Made by a program: the position numbers and the translations under genes
Notes under the pieces: model-generated
Seen by the model: the letters and a program-made list of their open reading frames with translations, nothing else
Database searches by the model: none
What the model was told of the DNA's origin: nothing
Assembly: GCF_000719335.1 (NCBI RefSeq)
Contig: NZ_JOGB01000090.1
Location: forward strand, 1 to 18,345
Origin: Streptomyces sp. NRRL S-87
GTDB lineage: Bacteria; Actinomycetota; Actinomycetes; Streptomycetales; Streptomycetaceae
Reading direction: 5' to 3'
DNA length: 18,345 bases
Shown: positions 1 through 16,228 of the stretch, one piece after another
How the letters are laid out: every line of letters starts with the position of its first letter
How positions within the stretch are numbered: the first letter of the stretch is position 1

Positions 1-108
1 CGGGTCCTCGGCGAGAAGCGCGTCGAGGATCGTGTCGCTGATCTGGTCAGCGATCTTGTCGGGGTGGCCCTCGGTCACGGACTCCGAGGTGAACAGGCGA
101 CGGGGCAT
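1..108 (-). CDS. metK: S-adenosylmethionine synthetase, N-terminal fragment
   Basis: Methionine adenosyltransferase makes S-adenosylmethionine from methionine and ATP in the cytosol. Only the first 36 codons are in the window, read leftward from ATG at 108 to the left edge. They begin [18 protein letters not shown], the classic family N-terminus, in which the His of EGHPDK belongs to the ATP-binding site. A GGAG ribosome-binding site lies about six bases upstream of the ATG. The gene is divergent from the biosynthetic genes. It could be the single housekeeping metK or an extra copy that supplies SAM to the methyltransferase at 4064-4858; the fragment cannot settle this. The family call is secure, and the C-terminal 90% of the protein is outside the window. 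Confidence 0.95.
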
Positions 109-482: not shown

Positions 483-590
483 ATGAATAAAGGCCTCATC
501 CGCACATACGAATTGAGTGGAGAGCGGTTTCTGTGCTTTCTCCCGTTCAATCAGGATCGCCATCGGCCGAAGGGCCGGGAGTTCTGGTAG
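483..590 (+). CDS. Possible short leader ORF, 35 codons
   Basis: An ATG at 483 opens a 35-codon frame (it begins MNKGLIRTYELSGERF) ending at TAG 588-590, 23 bases before the preferred start of the oxygenase. It lies inside the transcript predicted from the promoter at 410-439. There is no convincing Shine-Dalgarno sequence before it, and its codons are AT-rich compared with every neighbouring gene, so it may be chance. I recognise no family. If translated it could act as an upstream ORF that couples to the oxygenase gene. Confidence 0.2.
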   Translation: MNKGLIRTYELSGERFLCFLPFNQDRHRPKGREFW

Positions 591-613
591 GCGATGGTTG
601 GCTGGGATCCTCC

Positions 614-1621
614 ATGGCCGAAGACGAGCAGCAGTGGCGCATCCCCATGCCGCCCGGGGTCGCAGCGGAGCTGACCCGTGCCGCACGGTCCGCGCTGGCC
701 GCGGGCGACCGGCTCGACCTCGCGGCCCCCAGGCCCCGCGGGCTGGACCTGACCGAGGCGTTCGCGGCCGGACTGGGCCGCCGGCTCGCCGGCAGCCCGG
801 GCTTCGCCGTCGTCGAGGACTTCCCGGTGGACGCCGAGGACCCCCGGGAGACCGAGATGGCCTACTGGCTCCTCGGACTCCTGCTGGGCCGCCCCGTCAC
901 CCAGAGCCGCAAGGCCGATCTGCTCGGCCGGGTCGAGGACCGGGGCGCCGACATCGCGAGCCCCGTCCAGCGCGGCTACGAGAGTTCCGCCGCGCTCCCC
1001 TTCCACGTGGACCGCACCGACGTGATCGGGCTGCTGTGCGTCCGCCCCGCCCCGTCCGGCGGCCTGAGCCGGCTCGTGTCCTCCAAGGCCGTCCACGACG
1101 TGCTCCTGCACGAGCGCCCCGACCTGCTGGAAGAGCTCTACCGGCCGTTCCCGAACGACCGCCGGGGCGAGGAGCAGCCGGGCCAGGACCCCTGGTCCTC
1201 GATCCCCGTCTTCAGCCGCGTCGACGGCTCGTTCGCGACGCGGTACCTGCGGCGGTTCATCGAGGGCTCCCAGCGCCACGCGGCGGCCCCCCGGCTCACC
1301 GCCGGCCAGCTCGAGGCGATGGCCGTGCTGGACCAGGTCCTCGACCGGCCCGGGGTCTCCCTCGACATGGAACTCCGCAGGGGCGACCTGCAGTTGATCA
1401 ACAACTTCCACATCCTGCACGCCCGCACCGCCTTCGCGGACGGCGGCGGCCGGGGCCGGCTCCTGCTCCGCCTCTGGCTGGCCTTCGCCGGCAGCCCGGA
1501 GCTCCCCGAGCACTACGCGTCGCTCTACGGAGCGGTCGCGGCCGGCAGCTACCGGGGCGGCGTCTGGGCCCCGGGGACCGTCCCCGCGGATTTCGGCCGC
1601 CCCGTTTCCGAACTCGGTTGA
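614..1621 (+). CDS. TauD/TfdA-family Fe(II)/2-oxoglutarate-dependent oxygenase
   Basis: A 335-residue member of the taurine dioxygenase/clavaminate synthase-like family, which usually hydroxylates or desaturates an amino acid or other small cytosolic substrate using O2 and 2-oxoglutarate. The iron triad is visible: HVD at residues 131-133 and a distal His in LHAR (His269). An Arg-rich RGRLLLRLWL segment follows, where the 2-oxoglutarate-binding Arg is expected. The Asp of the HxD motif is present, so it should not be a halogenase. I place the start at ATG 614 because third-position G/C rises sharply there. An in-frame GTG at 533 has a better GGAG site but would add 27 residues with poor codon bias. 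The gene is followed by a hairpin at 1675-1691 and is probably its own transcript. The substrate is unknown; a cluster-specific amino or carboxylic acid is likely. Confidence 0.85.
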   Translation: MAEDEQQWRIPMPPGVAAELTRAARSALAAGDRLDLAAPRPRGLDLTEAFAAGLGRRLAGSPGFAVVEDFPVDAEDPRETEMAYWLLGLLLGRPVTQSRKADLLGRVEDRGADIASPVQRGYESSAALPFHVDRTDVIGLLCVRPAPSGGLSRLVSSKAVHDVLLHERPDLLEELYRPFPNDRRGEEQPGQDPWSSIPVFSRVDGSFATRYLRRFIEGSQRHAAAPRLTAGQLEAMAVLDQVLDRPGVSLDMELRRGDLQLINNFHILHARTAFADGGGRGRLLLRLWLAFAGSPELPEHYASLYGAVAAGSYRGGVWAPGTVPADFGRPVSELG

Positions 1622-1911: not shown

Positions 1912-2643
1912 ATGCCTGTCATCGACCTGGACCGCTATCGACGGGACGGCTACCAGCTGCTCCCGGGACTCCTCGACGACGAGGACCGCCGCCGGGCCGT
2001 CGCGTTCTTCGACGACCTCGACGGCGCCGCGGAGGTCTCCCCCTCGTACGAGCCCGAGTACGACGAGGGGGACGGCGTCCGCCGGCTGCGCAAGCTCCGG
2101 CGGCTGCTGTGGAACGACCCCGAGGTCTGGGGTCCCCTGCTGAACCGTGCCGGCGTCACCGACCTGGCCCGCCAGGTCGTCGGCGACAGCGCCGGGGTCG
2201 TCTTCCACGCGGCCTTCCTCAAGCCGGCGCTCGTCGGCACCGAGGTGGCGCTCCATCAGGACCAGGCCCTGTGGACCCACACCTACCCGGGCGCGTTCAG
2301 CGTCTGGTTCGCGCTGACGGAGGTGTCGCCCGCCAACGGCGGCCTCTTCGGCAGCCCCGGTTCGCACAGCGGCGGCGAGGTCGCCCACCGCGACCGGCCG
2401 CAGTACCGCTGGCACCCCAGCCTGGACGCCGCGGAGGACGGCCTGCGCGAGCCCGTGCAGTTCGAACTCCGTCCCGGCGACGGGGTGATGTGGGACCGCT
2501 TCTTCGCCCACGGCAGCGCCGCGAACACCTCGCCCGCCGACCGCCGCGGCATGGTCGTCGTCTTCGCCGACTCCTCCGCCCCCGGCTTCGCGGCCAAGGA
2601 CCACTTCCCGTTGGACGCTCTGCACGCGCTCGGTGCCGAGTGA
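1912..2643 (+). CDS. PhyH-family (phytanoyl-CoA dioxygenase-like) Fe(II)/2-oxoglutarate oxygenase
   Basis: A 243-residue cytosolic oxygenase of the PhyH superfamily, which in secondary metabolism typically hydroxylates small or carrier-bound substrates. Visible iron ligands are His115 and Asp117 in LHQDQ, and His200 in FFAHGSA. Arg211/Arg212 follow in the 2-oxoglutarate-binding position. The start region (MPVIDLDRYRRDGYQLLPGLL) is the usual PhyH N-terminal pattern. The ligand Asp is intact, so hydroxylation rather than halogenation is expected. The start at ATG 1912 has only a weak purine-rich site (GAAAG). It opens the five-gene run that continues with the synthase-cupin gene 41 bases later. 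With the TauD-like enzyme upstream, the cluster has two unrelated 2-oxoglutarate oxygenases, suggesting two oxidised positions. The substrate is unknown. Confidence 0.87.
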   Translation: MPVIDLDRYRRDGYQLLPGLLDDEDRRRAVAFFDDLDGAAEVSPSYEPEYDEGDGVRRLRKLRRLLWNDPEVWGPLLNRAGVTDLARQVVGDSAGVVFHAAFLKPALVGTEVALHQDQALWTHTYPGAFSVWFALTEVSPANGGLFGSPGSHSGGEVAHRDRPQYRWHPSLDAAEDGLREPVQFELRPGDGVMWDRFFAHGSAANTSPADRRGMVVVFADSSAPGFAAKDHFPLDALHALGAE

Positions 2644-2684
2644 CCGGACAACCCCCCGCGACCCTCTCAGCCGCTGGAGAACAG

Positions 2685-4064
2685 ATGACCTTCATCATCG
2701 ACGGCACCCTGCGCGAGGGGATGCAGTCGGCCCATGGCTGCTTCACCCTCGAACAGAGCGTGGAAGTCACCACCCTGCTGATCCGATCCGGGGTGGACAC
2801 CATCGAGTGCGGCCACCCCGCCATCGACGAGAGCGAGATGCTGCGCGTGGCGGCCGTCGTCGAGGCGGCCGGTGACACGCCCGTCCTCGCCCATGCCCGC
2901 GCCCACCTCGGTGACATCCAGGCCGTGGCCAAGAGCGGCGCCGCCTGGGTCGGCATCTTCCTCGGCGTCAACGACGTCTCCCGGCGCTCCCGGCTCCCCG
3001 GCAGCGACCTGAGCGACCTCTACGGACGCATCCGCGAGTCCGTCACCCATGCCCGCGAACTCGGGCTGCGCGTACGGTTCACGGTCGAGGACAGCAGCCG
3101 TACGGATCCCGGTGAACTCGTCGAGGCGTACCTCGTCGCCATCGAGGCGGGCGCCGAGCGGATCTGCTTCGCCGACACGCTCGGCATCCTGGAGCCCCAG
3201 GACACCGCCGCCCGGGTCCGGGAGCTGAAGAAGCGGTGTCCCGGCGTGGACATCGAGGTCCACCTCCACGACGACCGCGGGCTGGCCATGGCCAACGCGC
3301 TCGCGGCGATCGACGCGGGCGCCACGTGGGTGTCGACCTCCGTCAACGGTCTCGGCGAGCGGGCCGGCATCACGGACTACGCGGCGCTCGCGGCCAACCT
3401 GCACCACCGGGGGACCCGCGAGCTCGCCGACGGCGACCTGCTGGGCGACCTCAGCCGGCGGGTGGGCGCGTACTCCCGCTCCATGCCGGACCACCGTCGG
3501 CCCGTGGTCGGCCGGGACGTCTTCCACCACGTCGCCAAGCTGCACGTCCGTGCGGTGGAGCGCGAGCCCGGATCCTACGAATGGGTCGCGCCGGCGACGT
3601 TCGGACGGACCGGCAGCGTGTCCCGCCCGCAGCTGCCCGCCGACCCCGCGGCCTGGGTCGTCGACCCGAAGGTCATCTCCGCGACCGAGCTGCGCCACCA
3701 CCGGCACGGCCCCGGCGAGCGCTACGTCCTGGTCGACAACCGCTTCGTGCCGGGCGCGGACCAGTACTGCATCGCGCGCCGCATCCCCCAGCTCGACGAC
3801 TACGGCGCCGGCCACGTCGACACCCACGTGCACCACTGCGACAGCCTCTTCATGTTCCTCGGCGAGGGCGAGGGCTACGGCGGACTGTCGGTCGAGGTGT
3901 GGCTCGGTGACCAGGTCTTCCCGGTGCAGAGCCCCGCCTCGGTCTTCATCCCGGCCGGTGTCCCGCACGGGTACCGGGTGGTCGGCGGCGCCGGCACCTA
4001 CCTCAACCACGTCCTCGCGGGCGACTACAACTCCAGCCTGATCGACCCTGTAGGGAGCATCTGA
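2685..4064 (+). CDS. DRE-TIM alkylmalate/homocitrate-synthase-like enzyme fused to a C-terminal cupin
   Basis: A 459-residue two-domain protein. Residues 1 to about 300 form a DRE-TIM metallolyase barrel of the 2-isopropylmalate/homocitrate synthase family, enzymes that condense an acyl-CoA with a 2-oxo acid through a divalent metal. Visible motifs are DGTLREG (Arg10, Glu11), HLHDD (metal ligands His193 and His195) and NGLGERAGIT (Glu225); the Ile after ERAG resembles lysine-type homocitrate synthases. The LeuA-type regulatory domain is missing. Residues about 310-459 instead form a cupin with HVHH (381-384) and PHGY (His428) as likely metal ligands. The start is ATG 2685 with GGAG upstream. 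The upstream extension of the frame overlaps the PhyH gene and lacks coding character. The stop overlaps the next ATG by one base, so the two are probably co-translated. It is inferred to make a cluster-specific alkylmalate; the role of the cupin is unknown. Confidence 0.85.
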   Translation: MTFIIDGTLREGMQSAHGCFTLEQSVEVTTLLIRSGVDTIECGHPAIDESEMLRVAAVVEAAGDTPVLAHARAHLGDIQAVAKSGAAWVGIFLGVNDVSRRSRLPGSDLSDLYGRIRESVTHARELGLRVRFTVEDSSRTDPGELVEAYLVAIEAGAERICFADTLGILEPQDTAARVRELKKRCPGVDIEVHLHDDRGLAMANALAAIDAGATWVSTSVNGLGERAGITDYAALAANLHHRGTRELADGDLLGDLSRRVGAYSRSMPDHRRPVVGRDVFHHVAKLHVRAVEREPGSYEWVAPATFGRTGSVSRPQLPADPAAWVVDPKVISATELRHHRHGPGERYVLVDNRFVPGADQYCIARRIPQLDDYGAGHVDTHVHHCDSLFMFLGEGEGYGGLSVEVWLGDQVFPVQSPASVFIPAGVPHGYRVVGGAGTYLNHVLAGDYNSSLIDPVGSI

Positions 4065-4858
4065 TGACGATCCAGACCGAGAACACGAAGGCCGCCGCCT
4101 GGGACCTGATCGGCTCCCTCTTCTGGGAGACCGGGCGCACCACCGCCAAGCCCAGCGACGAGGAGATCGGCCTCTTCCTGGCCGGCATCACCGCCGGCGC
4201 GCGCTGCACGGTCGTCGGCGCCTCCACCAAGGACCTCGTCGAGGCCCTGATCACCCTCGGCGCCGAGGTGACGGTCATGGACTTCTCGGAGCGCATGTGC
4301 GAGGACCTGCGGGCGGCACTCCCCGCCGGCTCCTGCACGATCCTGCGCCACGACATCACCCAGCGGGCCCCCGAGGCGCTGCGCGGCACCCAGCAGTTCG
4401 TCCTCAACGACCGCCTGGTCAACCGCTTCAGCGAGGACGAGGCGCGCCGGGGGCTGGAGGGCATGCTGGACCTCCTCGCGGACGGCGGCCAGGTCCGGGC
4501 CTCCATCAAGCTCGGCCTGTACCCGATGGACGAGCGGATGATCGACACCGGCCGTGAGCGCGGCACCCTCGAGACGTTCTTCGACGCCGGGTCGAAGGTC
4601 ATCGACTTCGCCGCGGCCGGGGACGTCCTCACCGACTCGCTGCTCCCGCACGGCGGGATCGACCCCGAGATCCTCCTCGACTGGTACCGGGGGCGCGGCC
4701 GCGAGCAGCGCTTCGACCACGAGGACGTACTGGGCCTCGTCGCCGCCGCCGAGGTCGGGGGCCGGGGCCTCGCGCTGGTCTCGTCCACCGAGTTCGGCCA
4801 GGCGCCGAAGACCCGGATGTACACGGCCTCGGCCGTCTCTCCGCGCCAGGACGCCTGA
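4064..4858 (+). CDS. SAM-dependent methyltransferase-like protein
   Basis: A 264-residue protein with a class I methyltransferase layout. Residues 49-57 hold the motif I position (TVVGASTKD) and residues 70-76 the acidic strand end (TVMDFSE), whose Asp73 would bind the SAM ribose. The glycine-rich loop is degenerate: one Gly (G52) followed by ASTKD instead of GxGxG. The middle part reads like the motif IV-VI core (an FVLNDRLVNRF strand, then LLADGGQVRASIK). The start overlaps the synthase-cupin stop (TGATG), with GGGAG upstream, and the stop is only three bases from the next gene, so it is firmly part of the operon. Family logic suggests O-, N- or carboxyl-methylation of the alkylmalate-derived intermediate, by analogy with methyltransferases acting on aconitate or isopropylmalate. 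Substrate and activity are inferred. A non-methylating SAM-fold enzyme is possible. Confidence 0.7.
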   Translation: MTIQTENTKAAAWDLIGSLFWETGRTTAKPSDEEIGLFLAGITAGARCTVVGASTKDLVEALITLGAEVTVMDFSERMCEDLRAALPAGSCTILRHDITQRAPEALRGTQQFVLNDRLVNRFSEDEARRGLEGMLDLLADGGQVRASIKLGLYPMDERMIDTGRERGTLETFFDAGSKVIDFAAAGDVLTDSLLPHGGIDPEILLDWYRGRGREQRFDHEDVLGLVAAAEVGGRGLALVSSTEFGQAPKTRMYTASAVSPRQDA

Positions 4859-4861
4859 CCC

Positions 4862-6631
4862 GTGTGCGGAGTCGTCGGAGTGAGCCTGGCACCTGCGGCG
4901 GGCGGGACGGGGAGCGTCCCGGACGCCCGCGACCTGGCGCGGCACGGCATCGGCCGGTTGGCGCACCGCGGGCCGGACGGGCACGGCGTGGCCGGTGACG
5001 CGGCGTCCGCGGTCGCCATGTGCCGGCTCCGGGTGCGCAGCCGGCCCGCTGACGGGGTCCCCTTCACCACGGGCCACGACGGTGTGCACCTCGCCTACAA
5101 CGGTGAGGTGTACGCCGTGGGGTCCGGCGCCCGTGACGGCGCGCCCCGGGTGACGGTGCCCCGGGGCGGGCTGGACGAGGCGCAGGCGGTCGCGGAGCAC
5201 GACACCGCCGCGCTGGACGGCATGTACGCCCTGGTGCGCCGGGCCCCCGACGGCTCCGTCGAGGTCAGCCGCGACCCCCTCGGGATCAAGCCGCTCTACC
5301 TGCGGCGCGGTCCGCAGGGAGTCGCGGTGGCCTCGGAGATACCGGCGCTGCTGGACCTGTTCGGTCCGGCGCGCGTCCGCCCCGCGGCCGTGGCGCAGTT
5401 CGTCCTGCTCGGCCGGGTCGTGGACGGCGGCACGTGCTACGAGGACATCGAGCCCGTGCCGCCGGGCGCCCGGCTGCTCCTGAAGGAGGGCCGGTGCGAA
5501 CGGCTTCCGGGCAGCGGACCCTGGCAGGCCGACGTGGCAGCGGCCCCCGGGGACACGTCGCCGCAGGCCGTGCGCGACGCCGTCGCCCGCGCGGTGGACC
5601 GCGTGCTCGTCTCGGACCGTCCGCTGGGCCTGGCCCTCAGCGGCGGACTGGACTCCACGGTCCTGGCCCTCGAGCTGGCGGGCCGCGGCATCGAGGACCT
5701 CGCCACCGTGAGCGTGGTGCCCCGCGGCAACGGCGACGGCGTGCGCGACGTCGCCGAGCTGGGACTGCCCGGCGGCGCGTGGCGCGGCTGGCGGCACGCG
5801 TGGACGGAGTTCGGGCCGGCGGAGCTGTTCGCCGGCGTCGCCGACGCGGTGGCGGTGCTCGGCGAGCCGACCGCGCTGACCAGCGTCCCGATGTACGCGG
5901 CGCTGGCCCGCCTGGCCCGCGAGTCGGGGATCGTCGTGCTCCTGCTGGGCGAGGGCGCGGACGAGGTGTTCGGCGGCTACCGCAGCTACCTCGGGCTGGA
6001 CGGGCTGGCCTCCGCCCAGGAGTTCTACCTGGCGCCGGACCGGCTCGCGCTCGTCGGCGACCTGCTGGGGCCGGAGGCGCGGGAGGCGGCGCGCGAGGCG
6101 CTCCGGGCGGCGCTGCCCGCCGCCGACGGCCGGTCCGCGGCGGAGACCACGCGCGACTTCGAGTACGAGCACAGCCTCGAACCGCTGCTGCGCCGGGCCG
6201 ACCACCTCCTGATGGCCCGGGGCATCGAGGGGCGGACCCCGTTCCTGCACGGCGGGCTGCCCGCCCTGGGACGGTCGTTCCCGATGTCCGAGCTGGTCCG
6301 CGGCGGACAGACGAAGGTGCCGCTGCGCCAGGCGTACGCCAGTCGGCTGCCCCGCTGGACCGACGAGGTCAAGAAGCCGTTCCGGGCTCCCGTCGACGAG
6401 TGGCTGGCCGGGCCGCGGCGCGAGGACGTACTGCGCGGGCTGGAGGAACGCCGGGACCTGTTCGCGGCCGCCGGTCTGCGGGCCGCGGGCGTGGACCGGC
6501 TCGTCGGTGACGTGCGGGCCGGCCGGCCCGGGGCCACCGGCCTGGTGTTCCCCCTGCTGAGCCTCGGCAGCTGGCTGGAACGGGCCGGCTCCGCCGCCCC
6601 GACCCTCCCCACCCCTCCCAGAGGAGCCTGA
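4862..6631 (+). CDS. Asparagine synthetase B/beta-lactam synthetase-like ATP-dependent amidotransferase
   Basis: A 589-residue enzyme of the AsnB superfamily. The N-terminal class II glutaminase domain begins MCGVVGV, with the nucleophilic Cys exposed after Met removal. It keeps HRGPDGHG, YNGEVY and RDPLGIKPLY, but the region normally holding the SDTE motif is shortened and only GLDEAQ is seen there. The C-terminal synthetase domain has the PP-loop SGGLDST (260-266), GEGADEVFGGY (363-373) and VKKPFRAPVDEWL near the end, so ATP-dependent activation of a carboxylate is expected. AsnB homologues transfer glutamine-derived ammonia to form a primary amide; the related beta-lactam synthetases instead close a ring on an internal amine. 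The sequence does not distinguish these. The start is GTG 4862, fixed by the Cys at position 2 and only three bases after the methyltransferase stop. Confidence 0.87.
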   Translation: MCGVVGVSLAPAAGGTGSVPDARDLARHGIGRLAHRGPDGHGVAGDAASAVAMCRLRVRSRPADGVPFTTGHDGVHLAYNGEVYAVGSGARDGAPRVTVPRGGLDEAQAVAEHDTAALDGMYALVRRAPDGSVEVSRDPLGIKPLYLRRGPQGVAVASEIPALLDLFGPARVRPAAVAQFVLLGRVVDGGTCYEDIEPVPPGARLLLKEGRCERLPGSGPWQADVAAAPGDTSPQAVRDAVARAVDRVLVSDRPLGLALSGGLDSTVLALELAGRGIEDLATVSVVPRGNGDGVRDVAELGLPGGAWRGWRHAWTEFGPAELFAGVADAVAVLGEPTALTSVPMYAALARLARESGIVVLLLGEGADEVFGGYRSYLGLDGLASAQEFYLAPDRLALVGDLLGPEAREAAREALRAALPAADGRSAAETTRDFEYEHSLEPLLRRADHLLMARGIEGRTPFLHGGLPALGRSFPMSELVRGGQTKVPLRQAYASRLPRWTDEVKKPFRAPVDEWLAGPRREDVLRGLEERRDLFAAAGLRAAGVDRLVGDVRAGRPGATGLVFPLLSLGSWLERAGSAAPTLPTPPRGA

Positions 6632-6635
6632 CCCC

Positions 6636-9356
6636 GTGAACGACCGAACCGACGCCCGCCCCCGGCCGGTCCACGCCCCCGTGCGGCGCGACGACGTGGC
6701 CCACGGCGTCCTGCTGTACCCGCTGGACGAGCTCGCGGCGTCCGCCGGGGTCGACCTGGACACGCTGCCCTACACGGTGCGGCTGCTGCTGGAGAACGCG
6801 GCCCACGTGGCGGCGGCGGGGAAGGCCGGCCCGGACGTGCTGGACGCGGTCCTGCGGCCGGCCGACGGGGCCGACGTGGCGTTCCAGCCGGCCAGGGTGG
6901 TGCTCCAGGACTTCTCGGGGGTCCCGGTCGCGCTGGACCTCGCGGCGCTGCGCGCGGCGGCGGTCCGGCGCGGACTCCCCGCGGCCGCGGTGGGTCCGCA
7001 GGTTCCCGCCGATCTGGTCGTGGACCACTCCGTGCGCGTGGACGCGGCCGGAACGGCGGACGCGCTGCGCCTCAACACGGGGCTGGAGTTCGCCCGCAAC
7101 CGCGAGCGGTACGCGCTGCTGCGCTGGGCGGAGCAGGCCTTCGACGGCTTCCGCGTCGTACCGCCGGGCAACGGCATCGTGCACCAGGTCAACCTGGAGC
7201 GGCTGGCGCAGGTGGTGGTGCGGGCCGAGGGTCCGCAAGGGGCGGGGCTGACGCGTCCGGACACCGTGCTGGGCACGGACTCGCACACCCCCATGGTGGG
7301 CGCGCTCGGCGTCCTCGGCTGGGGCGTCGGAGGGATCGAGGCGACCTCGGTGCTGCTGGGCGAGCCGGTGCTGCTCGCCGCGCCCCGGGTGGTCGGCGTC
7401 CGGCTGACGGGAGAGCTGCCCCCGGGCACCACGGCCACCGACCTCGTGCTCACGCTCACGGAACGGCTGCGTCGCCACGGCGTGGTGGGCGCCTTCGTCG
7501 AGTTCTTCGGGGAGGGGTGCGCGGGGCTGAGCGTTCCGGACCGGGCGACCCTGGCGAACATGGCGCCCGACTACGGGGCGACCACCGCGCTCTTCCCGGT
7601 GGACGCCGAGACCCTCGCGTTCCTGCGGATCACCGGTCGGCCGGCGGAGCACGTCGAGCTGGTCGAGCGGTACTGCCGGGCGCAGGGGCTCTTCCGCGAG
7701 CCGGGGTCGGACGCGCGGGTGCGGTACGCGGAGGTGGTGGCGCTCGACCTGGGCGAGGTGGAGGCCTGTGTCGCGGGGCCGGGCCGGCCCGATCAGCGGG
7801 TCGCGCTGCGCGACGTCCCGGGGAGCCTGGGCGTGGCGCCCGTACCCGGGGACGGCGGCGACCGGCCGGCCGACGGCTCGGTGGTCATCGCCGCGATCAC
7901 GAGTTGCACCAACACCTCGCACCCGGGGTCGATGCTGACCGCGGGCCTGGTGGCACGGCGTGCGGTCGAGTTCGGGCTCACCGTCCCGGCCTGGGTCAAG
8001 ACCAGCCTCGCCCCCGGCAGCCGCACGGTGCCCGCCTACCTGGAGCGGGCCGGTGTCCTGCCCGCGCTCCAGGAACTGGGCTTCCACGTCGTGGCGTTCG
8101 GCTGCACCACCTGCCACGGCATGAGCGGCGACCTGCTGCCCGAGGCCGCCCGGGCGGTCGCGGACGAGGGGGTGCTGGGTGCTGCGGTGCTCAGCGGCAA
8201 CCGCAACTTCGAGGGCCGGATCCACCCGCAGGTGAAGGCCGCCTACCTCGCCTCGCCCGGCCTGGTCGTCGCGTACGCCCTGGCCGGCACGGTCACCCGG
8301 GACCTGACCGTGGAACCGGTCGGCGTCGCCCCCGACGGCCGCGAGGTGTACCTGCGCGACCTGTGGCCCAGCCCGCAGGAGGTCGCCGAGGCCACCCGTG
8401 CGGCCGTCGGGGCCGACCTCTACGACACCGCCTATGCGGGCCTGTACGAGGGCGGTGCCGCGTGGCGCGCCCTCGACGCCCCCCGGGGCGACCTGTACGA
8501 GTGGCCCGAAGGCTCCGACTACATCCTGGAGCCGCCGTACCTGGACGGGCCCGCGGACGGGTCGGCGGCGGACGGCTCCACGACGGACGGCTCGGCGGCG
8601 GACGGCTCGGCGGCGGACGCGGACGTCATGGGCGCACGGATCCTGGCCCTCCTCGGCGACTCGGTCTCCACCGACCACATCTCGCCGGTCGGCGCCATCC
8701 CCCGCGACGGCGACGCCGGCCGGTACCTGAGCGGACTCGGGGTGCCCGAGCGGGAGTTCAACAGCTTCGGTGCCCGGCGCGGCAACCACCACGTGATGGT
8801 GCGCGGCACCTTCGGCAACGTCCGGCTCCGCAACGCCCTGGCCGACGGGCGGGAAGGCCCCTGGACCCGGTTGCAGCCGACGGGCGAGCTGGTGTCCCTC
8901 CACGAGGCGGCGCAGTCGTACCGGACCGCGGGCGTGCCCCTCATCGTGGTGGCCGGAACGGAGTACGGCTGCGGCAGCGCCCGTGACTGGGCCGCCAAGG
9001 GCACCGCGCTGCTGGGTGTCCGCGCGGTCCTCGCCCAGGGCTTCGAGCGGATCCACCGGAGCAATCTGGTGGGGATGGGCGTGCTCCCCCTGTTGTTCCC
9101 GGCCGGGCTGGACGCCGGGGTCCTGGGCCTCGACGGGACGGAGGAGCTCGACCTCCTGGGTCTGACCGGACTGGGCCCACGCGGCGCGGTGACCGTCCGC
9201 GTCCGGCGCCGGGACGGGACGCACCGGTCCTTCGAGGCGGTCGCCGCACTCGAAACGGCCCGGGAATGCGCCTACTTCACCGCCGGCGGCGTCCTGCCGT
9301 ACACCGTGGCGCGGCTGCGGCGGGAGGCACTGCCCGCGGTGGGCGATCCGGCCTGA
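6636..9356 (+). CDS. Aconitase A-family isomerase, divergent active site
   Basis: A 906-residue homologue of AcnA/IRP-type aconitase, a full-length single-chain Fe-S hydro-lyase that moves a hydroxyl group between adjacent carbons of a tricarboxylate. Cluster cysteines are present: Cys424 in ITSCTNTS, and Cys490 and Cys493 in GCTTCHG. HQVNLE, TDSHTPM, FNSFGARRGNH and the swivel-domain motif YGCGSARDW (776-785) are also clear. Several usually invariant positions differ: GCTTCIGNSG is here GCTTCHGMSG, and the second Ser of GSSR is Ala782. A four-unit DGSAA repeat (641-660) lengthens the linker before the swivel domain. The start is GTG 6636 with GAGGAG upstream, four bases after the AsnB-like stop. 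Its operon position suggests it isomerises the product of the synthase-cupin enzyme, like the aconitase-like enzymes of phosphinothricin and FR-900098 biosynthesis. A spare housekeeping aconitase is less likely. Confidence 0.9.
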   Translation: MNDRTDARPRPVHAPVRRDDVAHGVLLYPLDELAASAGVDLDTLPYTVRLLLENAAHVAAAGKAGPDVLDAVLRPADGADVAFQPARVVLQDFSGVPVALDLAALRAAAVRRGLPAAAVGPQVPADLVVDHSVRVDAAGTADALRLNTGLEFARNRERYALLRWAEQAFDGFRVVPPGNGIVHQVNLERLAQVVVRAEGPQGAGLTRPDTVLGTDSHTPMVGALGVLGWGVGGIEATSVLLGEPVLLAAPRVVGVRLTGELPPGTTATDLVLTLTERLRRHGVVGAFVEFFGEGCAGLSVPDRATLANMAPDYGATTALFPVDAETLAFLRITGRPAEHVELVERYCRAQGLFREPGSDARVRYAEVVALDLGEVEACVAGPGRPDQRVALRDVPGSLGVAPVPGDGGDRPADGSVVIAAITSCTNTSHPGSMLTAGLVARRAVEFGLTVPAWVKTSLAPGSRTVPAYLERAGVLPALQELGFHVVAFGCTTCHGMSGDLLPEAARAVADEGVLGAAVLSGNRNFEGRIHPQVKAAYLASPGLVVAYALAGTVTRDLTVEPVGVAPDGREVYLRDLWPSPQEVAEATRAAVGADLYDTAYAGLYEGGAAWRALDAPRGDLYEWPEGSDYILEPPYLDGPADGSAADGSTTDGSAADGSAADADVMGARILALLGDSVSTDHISPVGAIPRDGDAGRYLSGLGVPEREFNSFGARRGNHHVMVRGTFGNVRLRNALADGREGPWTRLQPTGELVSLHEAAQSYRTAGVPLIVVAGTEYGCGSARDWAAKGTALLGVRAVLAQGFERIHRSNLVGMGVLPLLFPAGLDAGVLGLDGTEELDLLGLTGLGPRGAVTVRVRRRDGTHRSFEAVAALETARECAYFTAGGVLPYTVARLRREALPAVGDPA
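8556..8615 (+). repeat. Four 15-bp tandem repeats inside the aconitase gene
   Basis: Four consecutive in-frame 15-base units (8556-8570, 8571-8585, 8586-8600, 8601-8615) with the consensus GACGGCTCGGCGGCG. Units 3 and 4 are identical; unit 2 is the most diverged. They encode DGSAA, DGSTT, DGSAA, DGSAA, a flexible linker before the swivel domain. Confidence 0.9.
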
Positions 9357-9359
9357 CCC

Positions 9360-9395
9360 GCTGCCGGGCGCCCCTCGACGGGGGCGCCCGGCAGC
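9360..9395. terminator. Strong bidirectional hairpin terminator
   Basis: GCTGCCGGGCGCCCC (9360-9374) pairs perfectly with the complementary arm at 9381-9395, a 15-base stem with a six-base loop. It sits three bases after the aconitase stop and 16 bases from the end of the convergent ATP-grasp gene, so it should serve both transcripts. There is no long T-tract, which is normal for streptomycetes. Confidence 0.8.
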
Positions 9396-9411: not shown

Positions 9412-10656
9412 TCACGGGCCGTCCGGCGACGGCGACGGCTCGGTGACCACGCTCGCGGCGAACCAGGCGGACAGCTCCTTCATGCGGGACTCCACCTCCT
9501 GGTCGTCGGCTCCCGAGATCACGGCCACTCCGGCGTGGAGGTACGAGGCGGAGGTGACGTCGGGCATGGTCCCGCCCGGCGTGATCTTCAGCTCGACGTG
9601 GACCACTCCGGGGCGGGCGAGCACCTCGTCCTTCGTCGGTGCCTCGCGGACCAGGCCCTGGGGGGCGTAGAGGTGCATGTCGCCGTGCACGGCGTTCGTG
9701 CCGCCCGCGCCGGGTGCCACCGGGGCGGCGGGCCGGCCGAGCACCCCGCGGACCCATTCGTCGTGCAGGTTCACGCCGAAGGAACGCTCGACGACCTCGT
9801 CGGTACGACCGCCTCCGACGCGTGCTCCGCATTCACCGAAAATCATTTCCCCGTCGCGTACGAAGACTTCCATGTGGAATACGCCGTCGACGTGTTCCAG
9901 GGCCTTGAGGGAATCCTGGGCGACCACCTTGGCGGTTTCGAAGAGTTCCGTGTGCAGGGCGGGCGGGAGGGCAATGCAGCCGACGAGCCCGCCGTCATGG
10001 ATGTCGATGATGTTCTCGAGATAGCGGCCCATGGAGAGGAACGTCACCTCGCCGCCGCGCACCACGCCGTCGACCTGGAACTCGGCACCGGAAATGAATT
10101 CCTCGACGAGCCAGGGTCCCTTCGTGGCCGTGGTGCGGACGTATTCGGCCAGATCTTCGCGGCGGTCGATGCGGAACGTGTCGAGCGCGCCACTGCCGCT
10201 GAGCGGCTTGACCACGACGGGGAACCGGTCGGGATGGGCCGCCACGTCCGCCGCGCCGCTCACCGTGACGCACTGCGCGGTCCTCACGCCAGCGGCTCTG
10301 ACCAGCGCTTTCTGGACATCCTTGTCGCGCATGGCGACGGCACCGAAGGCGGCCCTATCGGTCTTGCGGGCGAGGTCGGACAGCACGGCCGCGGTGGCCA
10401 GGCAGAACTCGAGCCCACTGCAGACCGCGTCGAAGTCCCGCAGGTCGAGTGCATTCCTGGTCAGCCCGGCAAGGGCCTGGTCGACGCTCGTCTGGTCGGC
10501 CACCAGCACGGTCCTCATGTTCGGGAATTCGCGCCGGGCGGCTTCGACGTCGCCCGGCGTGAGAACACAGGTGACCTCGACTCCGGAGCGGTGCAGAGCG
10601 GCGACCGCACGGAACATCCAGCCAATGTGGAGAACGGATTCTGGGGTATTTGTCAC
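9412..10656 (-). CDS. ATP-grasp amide/peptide ligase
   Basis: A 414-residue ATP-grasp enzyme of the kind that joins a carboxylate, through an acyl phosphate, to an amine in dipeptide-type antibiotics (L-amino-acid ligase/carnosine synthase/DdaF-like families). Visible parts are an N-terminal Rossmann-like domain (VLHIGWMFRAVAAL), the nucleotide-binding strand and loop VVVKPLSGSGA (Lys150), LVEEFISGAEFQVDG, and the metal-binding end of the fold HMEVFV...FGECGARVGGGR. The start is GTG 10656, preceded by AAGGGA; an ATG slightly upstream runs straight into a stop. It is convergent with the aconitase gene across the hairpin at 9360-9395 and divergent from the MFS exporter. The context suggests it couples the modified acid to an amino acid, before or alongside the NRPS. 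The exact partners are unknown. Confidence 0.87.
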   Translation of the reverse strand: MTNTPESVLHIGWMFRAVAALHRSGVEVTCVLTPGDVEAARREFPNMRTVLVADQTSVDQALAGLTRNALDLRDFDAVCSGLEFCLATAAVLSDLARKTDRAAFGAVAMRDKDVQKALVRAAGVRTAQCVTVSGAADVAAHPDRFPVVVKPLSGSGALDTFRIDRREDLAEYVRTTATKGPWLVEEFISGAEFQVDGVVRGGEVTFLSMGRYLENIIDIHDGGLVGCIALPPALHTELFETAKVVAQDSLKALEHVDGVFHMEVFVRDGEMIFGECGARVGGGRTDEVVERSFGVNLHDEWVRGVLGRPAAPVAPGAGGTNAVHGDMHLYAPQGLVREAPTKDEVLARPGVVHVELKITPGGTMPDVTSASYLHAGVAVISGADDQEVESRMKELSAWFAASVVTEPSPSPDGP

Positions 10657-10807
10657 AAGGTCCCTTTGGTCATTGTTCCGGGGGGATTTAATTTAATGCC
10701 GCACACCGGGGCCAGCTACGTGAGGAAGGTCACAGGGTCCCCGCCCGAATCATGTTGATCAACAGAATGGATCCTGATGGGATGCATTCTGCTCATCCGT
10801 GCGCTTC
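10657..10807. promoter_or_regulatory. Divergent regulatory region between ligase and exporter genes
   Basis: 151 AT-richer bases that must hold the promoters of both genes. On the plus strand, TTGATC (10755-10760) and TGGGAT (10778-10783) are spaced by 17 bases and form a plausible promoter for the exporter. The -35 element overlaps the palindrome described separately. I could not pick a convincing leftward promoter. Confidence 0.45.
10753..10764. promoter_or_regulatory. Perfect palindrome TGTTGATCAACA, candidate operator
   Basis: A 12-base perfect palindrome overlapping the proposed -35 element of the exporter gene. Related GTTGATC elements occur upstream of metK (252-260) and twice upstream of the NRPS genes (16166-16180 and 16191-16198), which supports a shared regulator site. 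The regulator is not identified. Confidence 0.45.
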
Positions 10808-12076
10808 ATGGAGTCCGCATTGAAACAGAAGAAAAGGGCGATATCCCTCCGCTCGCTGCTGCCCTCGTCGCGCCCCCTGTGGGTGCTGGCGCTGAGCACG
10901 CTCGCCCGGAGCACCGGCAACGGCGTCGTCGTCGCGATCATCGTGCTCTACCTCACGCGCTCCGTGGAGATCAGTTCCAAGCACGTGGGCCTCGCCCTGA
11001 CCGTCGCCGCCGTCGTCGGCATGCTGGTCAGCATCCCCGCCGGCCACGCCAGCGACGTCCTGGGCGCGCGGCCGGCGGCCGTCTGCTCCGTCGTCCTGCA
11101 GGGCGTGGCCGTCTGGGGATACGTCCTCGTCGGGGGCTTCGGCGCGCTGATCGCCGCGGCCGCCCTGGTGGCGGTCACCGACTCCGCGTCCAACGCCTCG
11201 CGCGGCGCCCTCGTCGCCCTCGCGGTCCCGCAGCAGGACAGGGTGCGCACCCGGGCCTACCTCCGGTCGGTGACCAACGTCGGGTTCTCCGTCGGCGCCC
11301 TGCTCGGCGGCCTGGTGCTCGGCCGGGACTCGTCCGCCGTCTACACCGGGGCGCTGGTCGCCTCGGGCGCCCTCTTCATCGTGGCGGGCCTGGCGTTCCT
11401 CGCCCTGGACGAGGTACCGAAGGTGCCGCGCCCCGCCGAGGCCTCGCCGTGGGGCGTGCTGCGCGACGGGCCCTTCGTCGCCGTGGGGATGATCAACGCC
11501 GTCCTGATGATGAACGCGGGCATCCTCGACGTGGCCCTGCCCATCTGGATCGCCGAGCACACCCACGCGCCGATGTCCGTGTTCGCGCCCCTGCTCCTGG
11601 TCAACACCGTCATGGTCGTCTTCCTCCAGGTGCCGGTCAGCAAGGGTGCCGAGGACGTGCGCGGCGGCGCCCGGGCCCTGTTCCGGTCCGGTCTCTGGCT
11701 GGCCGCCTGCTGTGCCGCCATCGCGCTGGCCTCGGGGCGTTCCGCGTGGGTGGCGGTGGTCCTCCTCGTGGCCGGCGTCGCGATCCACACGGTGGGCGAG
11801 CTCCTCTACAGCGCCGGCTCCTGGGCCCTGTCGTACGAGCTGGCGCCCGAACACGCGCAGGGGCAGTACCAGGGCATGTTCGGCCTGACCACGCAGCTCG
11901 GTACGGCGATCACGCCGGCCGTCACGGCACTGCTCATCGTGCAGCACGGCTGGATCGGCTGGCTGGTGATGGGGACGATGCTGGCCGCGGCCGGAATCGC
12001 GGCACCGGCGGTGGCCCGCTGGGCCGAGCGGACCCGGCCGGCAGGAACGGAGTCCGTCGCCGCGGTGGCCGCCTGA
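10808..12076 (+). CDS. MFS drug/metabolite exporter
   Basis: A 422-residue integral membrane protein of the major facilitator superfamily, with about twelve hydrophobic segments. The first is near residues 22-44 (LALSTLARSTGNGVVVAIIVLYL). An MFS-like loop after helix 2 (GHASDVLGARPA) and the paired halves of the fold are recognisable. It would export the cluster product by proton antiport and so may also give self-protection; specificity cannot be read from sequence. Start choice is uncertain. ATG 10808 is listed, but GTG 10799 is also in frame, and TTG 10820 has the best-placed ribosome-binding site (GGAG, six bases upstream). It is divergent from the ATP-grasp gene and convergent with the VWA gene, with a hairpin at 12139-12161 between the stops. 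Confidence 0.88.
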   Translation: MESALKQKKRAISLRSLLPSSRPLWVLALSTLARSTGNGVVVAIIVLYLTRSVEISSKHVGLALTVAAVVGMLVSIPAGHASDVLGARPAAVCSVVLQGVAVWGYVLVGGFGALIAAAALVAVTDSASNASRGALVALAVPQQDRVRTRAYLRSVTNVGFSVGALLGGLVLGRDSSAVYTGALVASGALFIVAGLAFLALDEVPKVPRPAEASPWGVLRDGPFVAVGMINAVLMMNAGILDVALPIWIAEHTHAPMSVFAPLLLVNTVMVVFLQVPVSKGAEDVRGGARALFRSGLWLAACCAAIALASGRSAWVAVVLLVAGVAIHTVGELLYSAGSWALSYELAPEHAQGQYQGMFGLTTQLGTAITPAVTALLIVQHGWIGWLVMGTMLAAAGIAAPAVARWAERTRPAGTESVAAVAA

Positions 12077-12161: not shown

Positions 12162-12215
12162 CGGGGCGTCAGGTCATGATGAGGAGCGCCGGGGCGTCAG
12201 GTCATGATGAGGAGC
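12158..12215. repeat. Tandem duplication of 28 bp at the 3' end of the VWA gene
   Basis: The 30 bases at 12158-12187 recur exactly at 12186-12215, so the period is 28. The right copy carries the last codons (LLIMT) and the stop of the VWA gene. The left copy repeats that end downstream of the stop and reaches into the terminator arm. Confidence 0.92.
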
Positions 12216-13237
12216 CGGGTGTTCGGGACCAGTTTGCGGTTGACGCTGGTGCTCTGCACGAAGATGGTGAAGTCGTCGTTGTGGTCCGGCTTGATGCGCA
12301 CCTCCGCATCCGGCAGGCCGAGCAGGGCGCGGGCCTCCGGCCCCGTGTAGACGTGGTCCGACTTCTTCTCCAGCACCGCGACCTGCTTGCGCGCCTGGAT
12401 CTTCTCGGACTTGGTCAGCTCGTAGAACGCGCAGCCGGTGCGGTAGTCCTGCCCGGACTCGACGACCCACTCCCGGATCGCCGCATCGCGCGCCACGGGA
12501 ACGAGCCGGTACTGCGCGGGGTCCGCCGGCTCGAGACCGGCCGCCTTGATGGTGTCGCTGTTGACCACGTCCGCGCCCGTCGAGAAGACGGCCCGCGATC
12601 CGCGGATCCCCTTGGTGCGGCCCACCATGAACTTCTCGGTGGCCTCCCTGATGACCTGGCCGGCCTCCTGCAGGCCCTGCGTGCTCGTGGCGTCCCAGAT
12701 GGCGATGTTGTCCTTGGGGAAGCCGTACTGCATGGCTTCGCGCTTGCCCATCTGGTCCGGCACGAGGACGGCGAGCGTCCAGTTCTCGGCCTGCGTCTCG
12801 ATCATGGACGCCACGGCCCGCACCAGCTCGCCCGGCTTCTTGGACGGCGTGCCCGGGCAGCGGTGGCTCGCGTTCTCCTGCCCGTCCGTCAGCACGAACG
12901 TCAGGAAGCTGTGGTCGCCGTAGAGCTGGGCCGTCTGCGCCAGCTCGTGCTGCGACTTGAGCGTGGCGGCGAGCAGGGCCGTCATGCCGCCGGTGCGGTA
13001 GACCTCCTGGAGGGAGGGCATGCGCAGCACGTCCTTGTCGTAGACGACGCACTCCACCTGGTTCGAGAACACGTACACCGTGACCCGGGTCTCCTGGTCC
13101 AGCTCCTGCGAGCGGCGCGCCAGGTAGGCGATCTGCTGGTCGGCGACCTCGACGACCTTGCCGCTCAGGTGCGACATGGACGAACTGGCGTCCAGCACGA
13201 GCGCGACGTGGTTGATGTAGTTCTGGCTTCCGGACAT
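12197..13237 (-). CDS. VWA-domain protein
   Basis: A 346-residue protein with an N-terminal von Willebrand factor A domain (about residues 8-210). The metal-ion-dependent adhesion site is intact: DASSS (16-20), a Thr in TGGMTALLAAT and an Asp in LTDGQENASH. Such domains bind protein partners through Mg2+. There is no signal peptide or membrane segment, so it should be cytosolic. The C-terminal part (DYRTGCAFYELTKSEKIQARKQVAVL, then RALLGLPDAEVRIKP) is not a domain I can name. The start is ATG 13237 with GGGGAG six bases upstream; the frame stays open further upstream but loses coding character. It stands alone, convergent with the exporter and divergent from the two-component genes. Similar proteins are common in streptomycetes without a settled role. 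I see no direct link to the biosynthetic genes. Confidence 0.85.
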   Translation of the reverse strand: MSGSQNYINHVALVLDASSSMSHLSGKVVEVADQQIAYLARRSQELDQETRVTVYVFSNQVECVVYDKDVLRMPSLQEVYRTGGMTALLAATLKSQHELAQTAQLYGDHSFLTFVLTDGQENASHRCPGTPSKKPGELVRAVASMIETQAENWTLAVLVPDQMGKREAMQYGFPKDNIAIWDATSTQGLQEAGQVIREATEKFMVGRTKGIRGSRAVFSTGADVVNSDTIKAAGLEPADPAQYRLVPVARDAAIREWVVESGQDYRTGCAFYELTKSEKIQARKQVAVLEKKSDHVYTGPEARALLGLPDAEVRIKPDHNDDFTIFVQSTSVNRKLVPNTRLLIMT

Positions 13238-13488
13238 GGCGAACTCCCCGTTCCCGTTCTCCGATTCGGTACTCCGATCCTCGCAGCCACCACTGACAGT
13301 CGATCCCGGTCTCCGTTGCCGCGCCCCCCGCCGAGGACGGCGCCGCGGTTCACCCGAGGGCCACCTGAGCGACCTCACGGCATCACCGGGCCGCGTCATG
13401 GCCCCCTTGGTTCCGGGCCGACACGTGACGCCTGGGCGGCGGGTGATCGATACGTCGACGACATGCGCCGGCTCGTACCATCAGGGGC

Positions 13489-15286: not shown

Positions 15287-15321
15287 CCGACCGACGGGCC
15301 GCCCGGCTCACGGTGTCGGCG
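15274..15321. terminator. Inverted repeat between histidine kinase and VanZ genes
   Basis: CGCCGACAC (15274-15282) and GTGTCGGCG (15313-15321) are perfect nine-base complements. A further inner pair, AGCCG with CGGCT, is present. The structure covers the stop codons of both convergent genes and is a likely bidirectional terminator. Confidence 0.55.
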
Positions 15322-15990: not shown

Positions 15991-16020
15991 GCGGCCAGTG
16001 AAGCCGACGGCCCGGTGGGG

Positions 16021-16213: not shown

Positions 16214-16228
16214 CGCTGGAGCGAATTA

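What the first reader, a model, noticed from the sequence alone, without database searches (positions are those of the whole stretch)
1912..9356. A possible undescribed alkylmalate-type acid pathway inside a peptide cluster
Seen: one tight transcription unit encodes a PhyH oxygenase, a homocitrate/isopropylmalate-synthase-like enzyme with a cupin, a methyltransferase-like protein, an AsnB/beta-lactam-synthetase homologue and a full-length aconitase homologue, and ends in a strong terminator. Known: synthase plus aconitase-type isomerase pairs extend or rearrange 2-oxo acids (leucine, homocitrate, and the phosphinomethylmalate/phosphonomethylmalate steps of phosphinothricin and FR-900098). Carboxyl methyltransferases act on related acids in beta-lactone pathways such as cystargolide. 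Inference: the unit makes a tricarboxylate-like building block that is amidated or cyclised, methylated and hydroxylated, then joined to amino acids by the ATP-grasp enzyme and NRPS. I know of no described cluster with this exact set.
Basis: partly seen in the sequence, partly recalled or inferred. Interest (0 to 1): 0.78.

Follow-up and report, generated by a model that had tools for sequence, protein, structure and literature searches.

The report
Tricarboxylate-peptide gene cluster with SAM recycling
A Streptomyces-type bacterium carries an uncharacterised gene cluster that most likely joins a modified citrate-like acid to amino acids, and part of its core also occurs in an unexplained gene cluster of Pseudomonas aeruginosa.

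Summary
They form one arm of a roughly 33-kb cluster that this assembly seems to split inside a second metK gene. Contig C1 holds the other arm: a methylthioadenosine (MTA) salvage cassette, an adenylation protein, a T-C protein, a hydrolase, a second ATP-grasp ligase, a second methyltransferase and a PrpF/AsnB module. A relative with a single-contig genome (G1422) has nearly the same order unbroken. Six window genes (TauD, PhyH, synthase-cupin, MT1, AsnB, aconitase) recur together in all five relatives with a strong MT1 match; the NRPS at the window's right end does not. The synthase carries homocitrate-synthase-type residues, so 'alkylmalate' is probably wrong and 'tricarboxylate' probably right. 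The aconitase is far from the housekeeping AcnA (47-49%) but keeps its Fe-S cysteines. P. aeruginosa has a partly homologous locus (synthase-cupin, PhyH, AsnB, TauD, adenylation domain) that matches the orphan PA1211-PA1221 cluster; I found no product in print. An MTA-salvage element (cassette, mtnP alone, or a metK scar) sits at the arm junction in four of six carriers. This suggests, but does not show, that SAM is spent to MTA. Product unknown.

The parts
1..108 (-). 5' end of a second metK gene (first 36 codons); the contig ends here and contig C1 starts with a metK 3' end
   Evidence: translation [22 protein letters not shown]...; 93% DNA identity over 108 nt to the complete metK on C24, C1 start 84% over 99 nt
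533..1621 (+). TauD-family (clavaminate-synthase-like) Fe(II)/2OG oxygenase
   Evidence: PF02668 2.2e-31; weak, sub-cut-off NCBIfam hits to clavaminate synthase and others; H-x-D...H motif read from sequence; 73-88% identity in five relatives
1912..2643 (+). PhyH-family Fe(II)/2OG oxygenase
   Evidence: PF05721 3.9e-26; P. aeruginosa homologue 34% over 188 residues
2685..4064 (+). homocitrate-synthase-like acyltransferase with fused metal-type cupin domain
   Evidence: H70 and R131 invariant in the 29 aligned sequences
4064..4858 (+). MT1, class I SAM-dependent transferase of the 3IV6 family
   Evidence: PDB 3iv6 phmmer 9.5e-72; AF2 pLDDT 94; Foldseek 3iv6 TMq 0.92
4862..6631 (+). AsnB-type glutamine-dependent amidotransferase with Cys2
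   Evidence: PF00733 and GATase_7; N-terminus MCGVVG
6636..9356 (+). AcnA-type aconitase homologue of the cluster
   Evidence: PF00330/PF00694; 66-88% identity among five cluster copies, 47-49% to own AcnA on C30
9360..9395 (.). strong terminator-like hairpin between convergent genes
9412..10656 (-). ATP-grasp ligase with L-amino-acid-ligase C-terminal domain (LAL_C2)
   Evidence: PF13535, PF18603; 67% G163, 88% G188, 69% G1422, 52% G489, 46% on another contig of G437
10799..12076 (+). MFS exporter
   Evidence: PF07690 4.3e-38; 79% G163, 91% G188, 76-83% G1422 in two reading frames, 43% G437 (other contig), 31% G489

Best explanation
The window holds one arm of a natural-product cluster of about 33 kb (C1:1-19526 + a gap of about 1 kb inside metK + C90:1-12076). 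Inferred pathway: (1) the synthase condenses acetyl-CoA with a 2-oxo dicarboxylate (2-oxoglutarate or oxaloacetate) to a homocitrate/citrate-type acid; (2) the dedicated aconitase, helped in the larger version by a PrpF-like isomerase, moves the hydroxyl or double bond; (3) AsnB, using glutamine, makes a carboxamide; (4) MT1 and MT2 use SAM on this acid, and PhyH and TauD oxidise it; (5) an adenylation protein loads an amino acid (Thr-type code here) onto a T-C protein that joins it to the acid, ATP-grasp ligases add one or two more amino acids, and the hydrolase and MFS pump release and export the product. It is probably a small peptide-capped antimetabolite. A metK plus methionine-salvage cassette between the arms would regenerate SAM from methylthioadenosine. 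Shown: gene content, gene order, co-conservation, homocitrate-synthase-type residues, kept Fe-S cysteines and substrate residues of the aconitase. Inferred: every substrate, the order of steps, the product class and the C1-C90 junction itself.
For: Synthase: best PDB relatives by sequence and fold are homocitrate synthases; H70 and R131 align with homocitrate-synthase residues, differ in the one isopropylmalate synthase whose alignment I saw (3ewb: L and Q), and are invariant in 29 aligned homologues. Aconitase: Fe-S cysteines and the recalled active-site Arg/His/Asp/Ser positions kept in 5 of 5 cluster copies, except the second Ser of GSSR. TauD, PhyH, synthase, MT1, AsnB and aconitase in G163, G188, G489, G437 and G1422. 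By equal longest-contig lengths, the top 25 synthase rows share 19 with the top 34 MT1 rows and 10 with the top 25 aconitase rows (numbers typed). T-C, adenylation protein, hydrolase, second ATP-grasp and MT2 on C1 of the same genome; T-C and hydrolase near the block in all five relatives, A in all five but of another specificity type in two. G1422 carries both arms on one contig. PrpF/4-oxalomesaconate-tautomerase-like protein in module B (over the Pfam cut-off, below the NCBIfam ones). AsnB Cys2.
Against: No product, assay or expression data. No decarboxylating dehydrogenase or aminotransferase among the cluster genes scanned, so the source of an amine on the acid is unexplained. The P. aeruginosa locus matches only synthase, PhyH, AsnB, TauD and A: no match for aconitase, ATP-grasp, MT1, MFS, T-C, hydrolase or mtn genes; its methyltransferase shows only 24 bits to MT2 and nothing to the MT1 profile. 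C. sphaeroides matches only synthase (barrel without cupin), MT1 and AsnB. G489 lacks MT2 in the stretches fetched, and module B is not found near the cluster in G163, G188 or G489, so the product must vary. The C1-C90 join rests on metK fragments and gene order in relatives, not on a read across the gap.
Confidence: 0.55

Rival explanations
1. The aconitase is not biosynthetic but a self-resistance copy: the product (or its freed acid) inhibits the cell's aconitase, and the cluster carries a tolerant AcnA.
For: Full-length AcnA type beside another full AcnA in the genome (C30). Fixed changes at conserved motifs in 5 of 5 cluster copies: GSSRDW to GSARDW and TCIG to TCHG. No aconitase match in the P. 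aeruginosa and C. sphaeroides loci.
Against: Only 47-49% identity to the own AcnA against 66-88% within clusters, more distant than expected for a recent resistant duplicate (no tree was built). It follows AsnB by 4 nt. A PrpF-like isomerase in the linked module fits a tricarboxylate pathway.
Confidence: 0.2
2. One of the SAM enzymes (MT1 or MT2) does not methylate but transfers or cyclises the 3-amino-3-carboxypropyl part of SAM and releases methylthioadenosine, which the metK-mtn cassette recycles. This would supply the missing amino group.
For: metK end, mtnAB, mtnD, mtnC and mtnP precede the adenylation gene on C1; in G437 the cluster contig ends in metK beside TauD and another contig starts with the metK end and the same cassette; mtnP alone lies between A and TauD in G1422; a 27-residue metK remnant (70%) lies there in G188. 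Mtn enzymes recycle MTA, not the SAH made by methylation. No aminotransferase among the cluster genes scanned.
Against: G163 has no mtn match beside the cluster (a 50-54% mtn set without mtnP lies elsewhere) and G489 has the cassette on another contig. The cassette could serve module B, or sit there by chance. MT1 and MT2 look like ordinary class I methyltransferases. No mtn match in the P. aeruginosa and C. sphaeroides loci.
Confidence: 0.3
3. Two neighbouring pathways share the locus: module A (TauD to MFS with A, T-C, hydrolase) makes one compound, and module B with metK-mtn, grasp2 and perhaps MT2 makes another.
For: Module A occurs without module B in the stretches of G163, G188 and G489. 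Each module has its own AsnB, and there are two ATP-grasp ligases.
Against: MT2, T-C, hydrolase and A stand beside module A in G188 and G163, but in the own genome and G1422 MT2 directly adjoins module B. Both modules have tricarboxylate-type enzymes (aconitase, PrpF-like).
Confidence: 0.3
4. The unit is an isopropylmalate-type pathway as in the beta-lactones cystargolide and belactosin, with MT1 as the carboxyl methyltransferase.
For: CysG and BelI appear among distant fold matches of MT1 (TMq about 0.43-0.47); ATP-grasp ligase present.
Against: Synthase residues and nearest structures are of the homocitrate-synthase kind. The isomerase is AcnA-type (1062 bits), not LeuCD. The fold match to CysG/BelI is no better than to many other methyltransferases.
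Confidence: 0.05

Closest known systems
P. aeruginosa orphan NRPS cluster PA1211-PA1221 (L120/L122; identified by matching gene order and annotation to the table in PMC9866376, passages read; not compared with PAO1 sequence)
   Same: Synthase-cupin 47% over 454 residues, PhyH 34%, AsnB 31%, TauD 37%, adenylation domain 32-37% with a Val-type code shared with the two Kitasatospora-type relatives; hydrolases and MFS by annotation only
   Different: No match for aconitase, ATP-grasp, MT1, mtn genes, T-C, hydrolase or MFS queries; its MTase is not of the MT1 family; A-T plus a separate condensation protein (name from PMC9866376); an extra AMP-binding protein
Cereibacter sphaeroides plasmid pDE operon (L121), with a 3IV6-like protein
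   Same: Synthase 49% over 300 residues, MT1 50%, AsnB 39%
   Different: Synthase without the cupin; radical SAM and PLP-dependent proteins by annotation; no oxygenase, aconitase or ligase match
Pantaphos (hvr) cluster of Pantoea ananatis (passages of PMC9933511 read; PMC7858074 seen only in a search listing)
   Same: NifV/IPMS-type synthase, aconitase-family isomerase, methyltransferase, ATP-grasp protein and MFS pump in one cluster; works by the same malate-extension logic
   Different: Phosphonate (PEP mutase), LeuCD-type isomerase; no AsnB, 2OG oxygenase or NRPS under hvr in the passage read; MT2 matches a solved HvrF (9e72) only at E 4.6e-4
Homocitrate synthase / AcnA aconitase / AsnB / L-amino-acid ligase families
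   Same: Domain assignments
   Different: Synthase falls below the homocitrate synthase equivalog cut-offs (253 of 413.55 bits, TIGR02146) and carries a cupin part after the barrel

Membership tests
Homocitrate synthase | HMGL-like TIM barrel with TLREG and H-x-H metal motif | tested here: met
Homocitrate synthase | His and Arg that hold the distal carboxylate of 2-oxoglutarate (roles recalled) | tested here: met
   H70 and R131 align with His and Arg in the four HCS chains shown and are invariant in A1; 3ewb (IPMS), the only IPMS alignment shown, has L and Q
Homocitrate synthase | Score over the curated equivalog cut-off | tested here: not met
   253 bits against 413.55 for TIGR02146; 248.6 against 462.9 for TIGR02660, so it is called HCS-like and not filed as HCS
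Homocitrate synthase | Forms homocitrate from 2-oxoglutarate and acetyl-CoA | not testable with these tools
   needs assay
AcnA aconitase | Three Fe-S cysteines, substrate Arg residues, catalytic Ser, full domain set | tested here: met
   TIGR01341 1062 bits against 945; but the second Ser of GSSR is Ala
AsnB-type amidotransferase | Catalytic Cys2 in the glutaminase domain plus synthetase domain | tested here: met
   MCGVVG; PF13537 and PF00733
Beta-lactam synthetase | Loss of the glutaminase Cys (recalled) | tested here: not met
   Cys2 present
PA1211-PA1221-type cluster | Synthase-cupin, PhyH, AsnB, TauD and adenylation protein together | tested here: met
   sequence matches 47, 34, 31, 37 and 32%
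PA1211-PA1221-type cluster | Same MFS, hydrolase and condensation proteins | tested here: inconclusive
   present there by annotation, but our queries give no match at E 1e-10
PA1211-PA1221-type cluster | Same methyltransferase family | tested here: not met
   A2 profile finds no match in the PA protein; MT2 matches it at 24 bits only
Phosphonate (pantaphos/phosphinothricin) clusters | PEP mutase | tested here: not met
   none among the C90 genes and C1:1-19526 genes scanned; C1 20-40 kb was read only as translations, not scanned
Cystargolide/belactosin beta-lactone clusters | Isopropylmalate-synthase-type enzyme | tested here: not met
   HCS-type residues
Any MIBiG entry | Same gene set in a characterised cluster | not testable with these tools
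   MIBiG not available; literature searches listed none that I recognised, in the open-access set only

The most novel reading that the evidence does not exclude
A pathway that spends SAM as a carbon-nitrogen building block: a class I 'methyltransferase' hands the 3-amino-3-carboxypropyl group of SAM to a homocitrate-type amide made by the synthase, aconitase and AsnB, while a built-in MetK and MtnP/A/B/C/D cassette turns the released methylthioadenosine back into SAM; the resulting amino-tricarboxylate is capped with amino acids as a Trojan-horse antimetabolite.
Probability: 0.25. Interest if true: 0.82.

Novelty: new variant of a known kind. Interest (0 to 1): 0.6.

Why it matters
It gives a much fuller gene set for a building-block pathway that is scattered through actinobacteria and proteobacteria, including an orphan cluster of P. 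aeruginosa reported as RpoH-induced (PA1211-PA1221, PMC9866376) and partly RhlR-controlled (PA1221, PMC9040856). The aconitase and the homocitrate-type synthase suggest concrete substrates to test, so the orphan enzyme could be assigned in vitro. A linked MTA-salvage cassette would, if functional, flag other clusters that spend SAM to MTA.

Tried and rejected
MT1 profile on 14 of those 80 genomes: 0 of 14. Family of one Rhodovulum genome: 1 of 295. Alahopcin as a candidate product (recalled structure): 1 irrelevant paper in the listing; dropped. An apparent aconitase-MT2 fusion (P0232) was rejected: the aconitase match stops at residue 755 of P0232 and the MT2 match starts at 877, with a stretch between that reads like a shifted frame; it only suggests that the genes are neighbours. 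The A-domain code of G188 was not obtained (my script picked a wrong frame); that row was dropped. C. sphaeroides 123-aa protein as a split cupin: not supported (A1 profile matches only the barrel protein). PHROGs: no family for 3 proteins. AzeJ-like azetidine synthase: no such name among the hits shown for MT1 and MT2, inconclusive. Calling the aconitases a 'clade' was dropped on re-check: no tree was built, and in the database listing identity falls gradually from 94 to 52% over the 120 rows shown. The statement that MFS, hydrolase and T-C are shared with P. aeruginosa by sequence was withdrawn. Eight matches at E 3.6e-4 to 8.9e-4 (20-22 bits) were treated as noise, two at E about 1e-38 kept as remote. 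Wrong-frame ORFs at the TauD and MFS loci were scanned first and gave nothing; the right frames are.


Full report
OBSERVATION. The block is PhyH (1912-2643), synthase-cupin (2685-4064), MT1 (4064-4858), AsnB (4862-6631) and aconitase (6636-9356), with gaps of 41, -1, 3 and 4 nt. It is followed by a hairpin with a 16-bp stem at 9360-9395. A TauD-family oxygenase (533-1621; PF02668 2.2e-31) lies 290 nt upstream. An ATP-grasp ligase (9412-10656, minus) and an MFS pump (10799-12076) lie downstream. I take the large antisense ORFs for high-GC artefacts: the two I scanned (551-1681, 14138-15196) had no Pfam match, the longest (4025-6763, 6369-9224) were not scanned, and the sense genes have third-position GC of 0.80-0.98.

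CO-CONSERVATION. The MT1 profile (A2) is rare. Genus sample: 13 of 392 at E 1e-3, of which 3 strong (G000, G163, G188), 2 remote and 8 near threshold. With a limit of 1e-20: 4 of 249 in the family sample (adding G437, G489), 1 of 396 in the phylum sample (the own genome), 3 of 391 in the order sample (adding G1422). The samples overlap. In the five relatives with a strong match, TauD, PhyH, synthase, MT1, AsnB and aconitase are all present: G163 72-83% identical, G188 88-95%, G489 and G437 67-80%, G1422 74-85% apart from the aconitase, which aligns at 66 and 76% in two frames. ATP-grasp and MFS follow in G163, G188 and G1422. G489 has them at 52 and 31%. G437 has them at 46 and 43%, on another contig. 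In the protein database the top 25 synthase rows share 19 longest-contig lengths with the top 34 MT1 rows and 10 with the top 25 aconitase rows (one contig per cluster is listed, so this is a rough lower bound). The vWA and VanZ genes had no match in the 53-91 kb fetched per relative. The response regulator (35%) and kinase (31%) matched only in G188, and the NRPS C-T protein only at 25-35%, in part to the T-C protein.

THE OTHER ARM. Near the block the relatives have a T-C NRPS protein, a standalone adenylation protein and an alpha/beta hydrolase (5 of 5), and MT2 (4 of 5; not in G489). In the window's genome these are on contig C1 (T-C 69% at C1:6359-7909). C1 begins with the last codons of metK, then an MtnA-MtnB fusion, acireductone dioxygenase, MtnC and MtnP, all over their NCBIfam or Pfam cut-offs. 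The adenylation protein (PF00501), hydrolase, T-C (PF00550+PF00668), a second LAL_C2 ATP-grasp ligase and MT2 follow. The window starts with the first 36 codons of metK on the minus strand. The two ends are 93% (108 nt) and 84% (99 nt) identical to the complete metK on C24, which may explain the contig break. G437 looks the same: its cluster contig ends in metK beside TauD, and another contig starts with the metK end and mtnAB-D-C-P. G1422 shows both arms on one contig: dihydroorotase-like, acyl-CoA dehydrogenase, PrpF-like, AsnB2, two bicupins, an orphan 413-aa protein, MT2, grasp2, T-C, hydrolase, A, MtnP, TauD, PhyH, synthase, MT1, AsnB, aconitase, grasp and MFS, from 8,944,456 to 8,972,194. 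The window's genome has the same order with metK-mtnAB-D-C added and a flavin reductase at the end, which I did not find in the relatives.

CHEMISTRY. The synthase is nearest to homocitrate synthases by sequence (6ktq 4e-55) and by fold, although below the equivalog cut-offs. H70 and R131 align with His and Arg of the four homocitrate synthase chains shown and are invariant in the 29 aligned homologues; the isopropylmalate synthase 3ewb has L and Q there. That these residues hold the distal carboxylate of 2-oxoglutarate is recalled. The cupin part keeps H377, H381, H383 and H428 in all 29, as metal-binding cupins do; its role is unknown. The aconitase keeps the three cysteines (TSCTNT, GCTTC), NRNFEGR, the Arg of RGTF and the first Ser of GSxR. 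All five cluster copies have GSAR for GSSR and TCHG for TCIG; they are 47-49% identical to the own AcnA on C30 but 66-88% to each other. No tree was built, and database identity falls gradually. AsnB starts MCG, so its glutaminase should work. MT1 models as a class I SAM enzyme (pLDDT 94; 3iv6 TMq 0.92, the other rows shown 0.43-0.62). Adenylation codes by alignment: own and G163 DFWNVGMVH (Thr-like), G489 DALWMGGVF, G437 DALWLGGVF, P. aeruginosa DALWLGGTF (Val-like; amino-acid assignments recalled).

RELATIVES IN OTHER PHYLA. The plasmid search gave 6 records. In P. aeruginosa (L120/L122) the annotated order is NRPS, hypothetical, hydrolase, PhyH, synthase, MTase, AMP-binding gene (in two pieces around Mu-like phage genes), AsnB, clavaminate-synthase family, MFS, hydrolase. 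This matches the PA1221-to-PA1211 table in PMC9866376 (passages read), which calls PA1220 a condensation domain. Papers describe that cluster as RpoH-induced (PMC9866376), with PA1221 in the RhlR core regulon (PMC9040856), and as an NRPS of unknown function with proteins lowered by calprotectin (PMC8557868); I read passages only. I found no product in searches (open-access papers). By sequence only synthase, PhyH, AsnB, TauD and A match; aconitase, ATP-grasp, MT1, MFS, T-C and hydrolase queries do not, nor do the mtn and module B ones apart from AsnB2, which hits the same AsnB at 28%. The C. sphaeroides pDE operon matches in synthase, MT1 and AsnB. Two genus mates (G030, G003) carry remote MT1, TauD and AsnB together; in G003 ketopantoate hydroxymethyltransferase and pantoate ligase genes lie beside them.

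THE SALVAGE CASSETTE. MtnP, A, B, C and D recycle methylthioadenosine, which methylation does not produce (general knowledge). The cassette, mtnP alone, or a metK scar lies between the adenylation gene and TauD, or abuts TauD, in 4 of 6 carriers: own genome and G437 (both by contig ends), G1422 (mtnP), G188 (27-residue metK remnant, 70%). It does not in G163 (another mtn set elsewhere) or G489 (same cassette on contig C7, beside what looks like another NRPS locus). The salvage marker ARD is accessory in the genus (44 of 199 genomes, 43 over the cut-off) and present in 4 of 5 carriers tested (G1422 not tested; too few for a firm statistic). This is the basis of the novel case. The counter-reading is that it serves module B or came along by chance.

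VERDICT. An uncharacterised cluster whose core logic (synthase, isomerase, amidotransferase, ligases) resembles known malate-extension pathways such as pantaphos, with a combination and a SAM-recycling annex that I did not find described. MIBiG could not be searched. Product, substrates and order of steps are inference.

Noticed in passing
L113 (own genome contig C102:1-11764): A second synthase/isomerase NRPS locus: NRPS condensation end, thioesterase, A-T protein, TauD, aminotransferase, LeuC-like and HCS/IPMS-like genes and a LeuD-like frame read by eye on one short contig.
   Followed up: partly
L132:10210-19526 (own C1), L145/L150 (G437), L154 and L153 end (G1422): Module B: an orphan 413-aa protein without a Pfam or PDB match, two bicupins, AsnB2, PrpF/4-oxalomesaconate-tautomerase-like, acyl-CoA dehydrogenase and dihydroorotase-like; G437 and G1422 are 52-79% identical to the own genome; a flavin reductase only in the own genome.
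   Followed up: partly
L114:3717-10581 and L115:1964-16152: Remote MT1 (35-39%), TauD (33-35%) and AsnB (28-29%) homologues recur together, in L115 beside ketopantoate hydroxymethyltransferase (PF02548) and pantoate ligase (PF02569), so MT1-TauD-AsnB may be a reusable trio.
   Followed up: partly
L121:12781-20338 (C. sphaeroides pDE): A 3IV6-family protein (3iv6 was deposited as a 'Zn-dependent alcohol dehydrogenase') sits in a plasmid operon with radical SAM, synthase, PLP-dependent and AsnB genes; the deposited name looks wrong.
   Followed up: partly
L120:17121 to L122:27076 (P. aeruginosa plasmid): The AMP-binding gene at the PA1215 position is in two pieces on either side of Mu-like phage genes in this plasmid copy.
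   Followed up: no
L144:7737-13392 (G489 contig C7): The same metK-mtnA-B-D-C-P cassette next to genes that read by eye as SARP regulator, thioesterase and TauD, with adenylation-domain matches (37-43%) further along the contig in L151, suggesting a portable unit of biosynthetic clusters.
   Followed up: partly
12197-18345: A protein with weak, sub-cut-off vWA matches, a two-component system, a VanZ-like protein, an NRPS C-T protein and the start of another NRPS; not conserved beside the block in relatives.
   Followed up: partly
P0232: The predicted protein runs from an aconitase frame into MT2, apparently through a shifted frame; suggests acn and MT2 are adjacent in another genome, as they are in G437.
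   Followed up: yes
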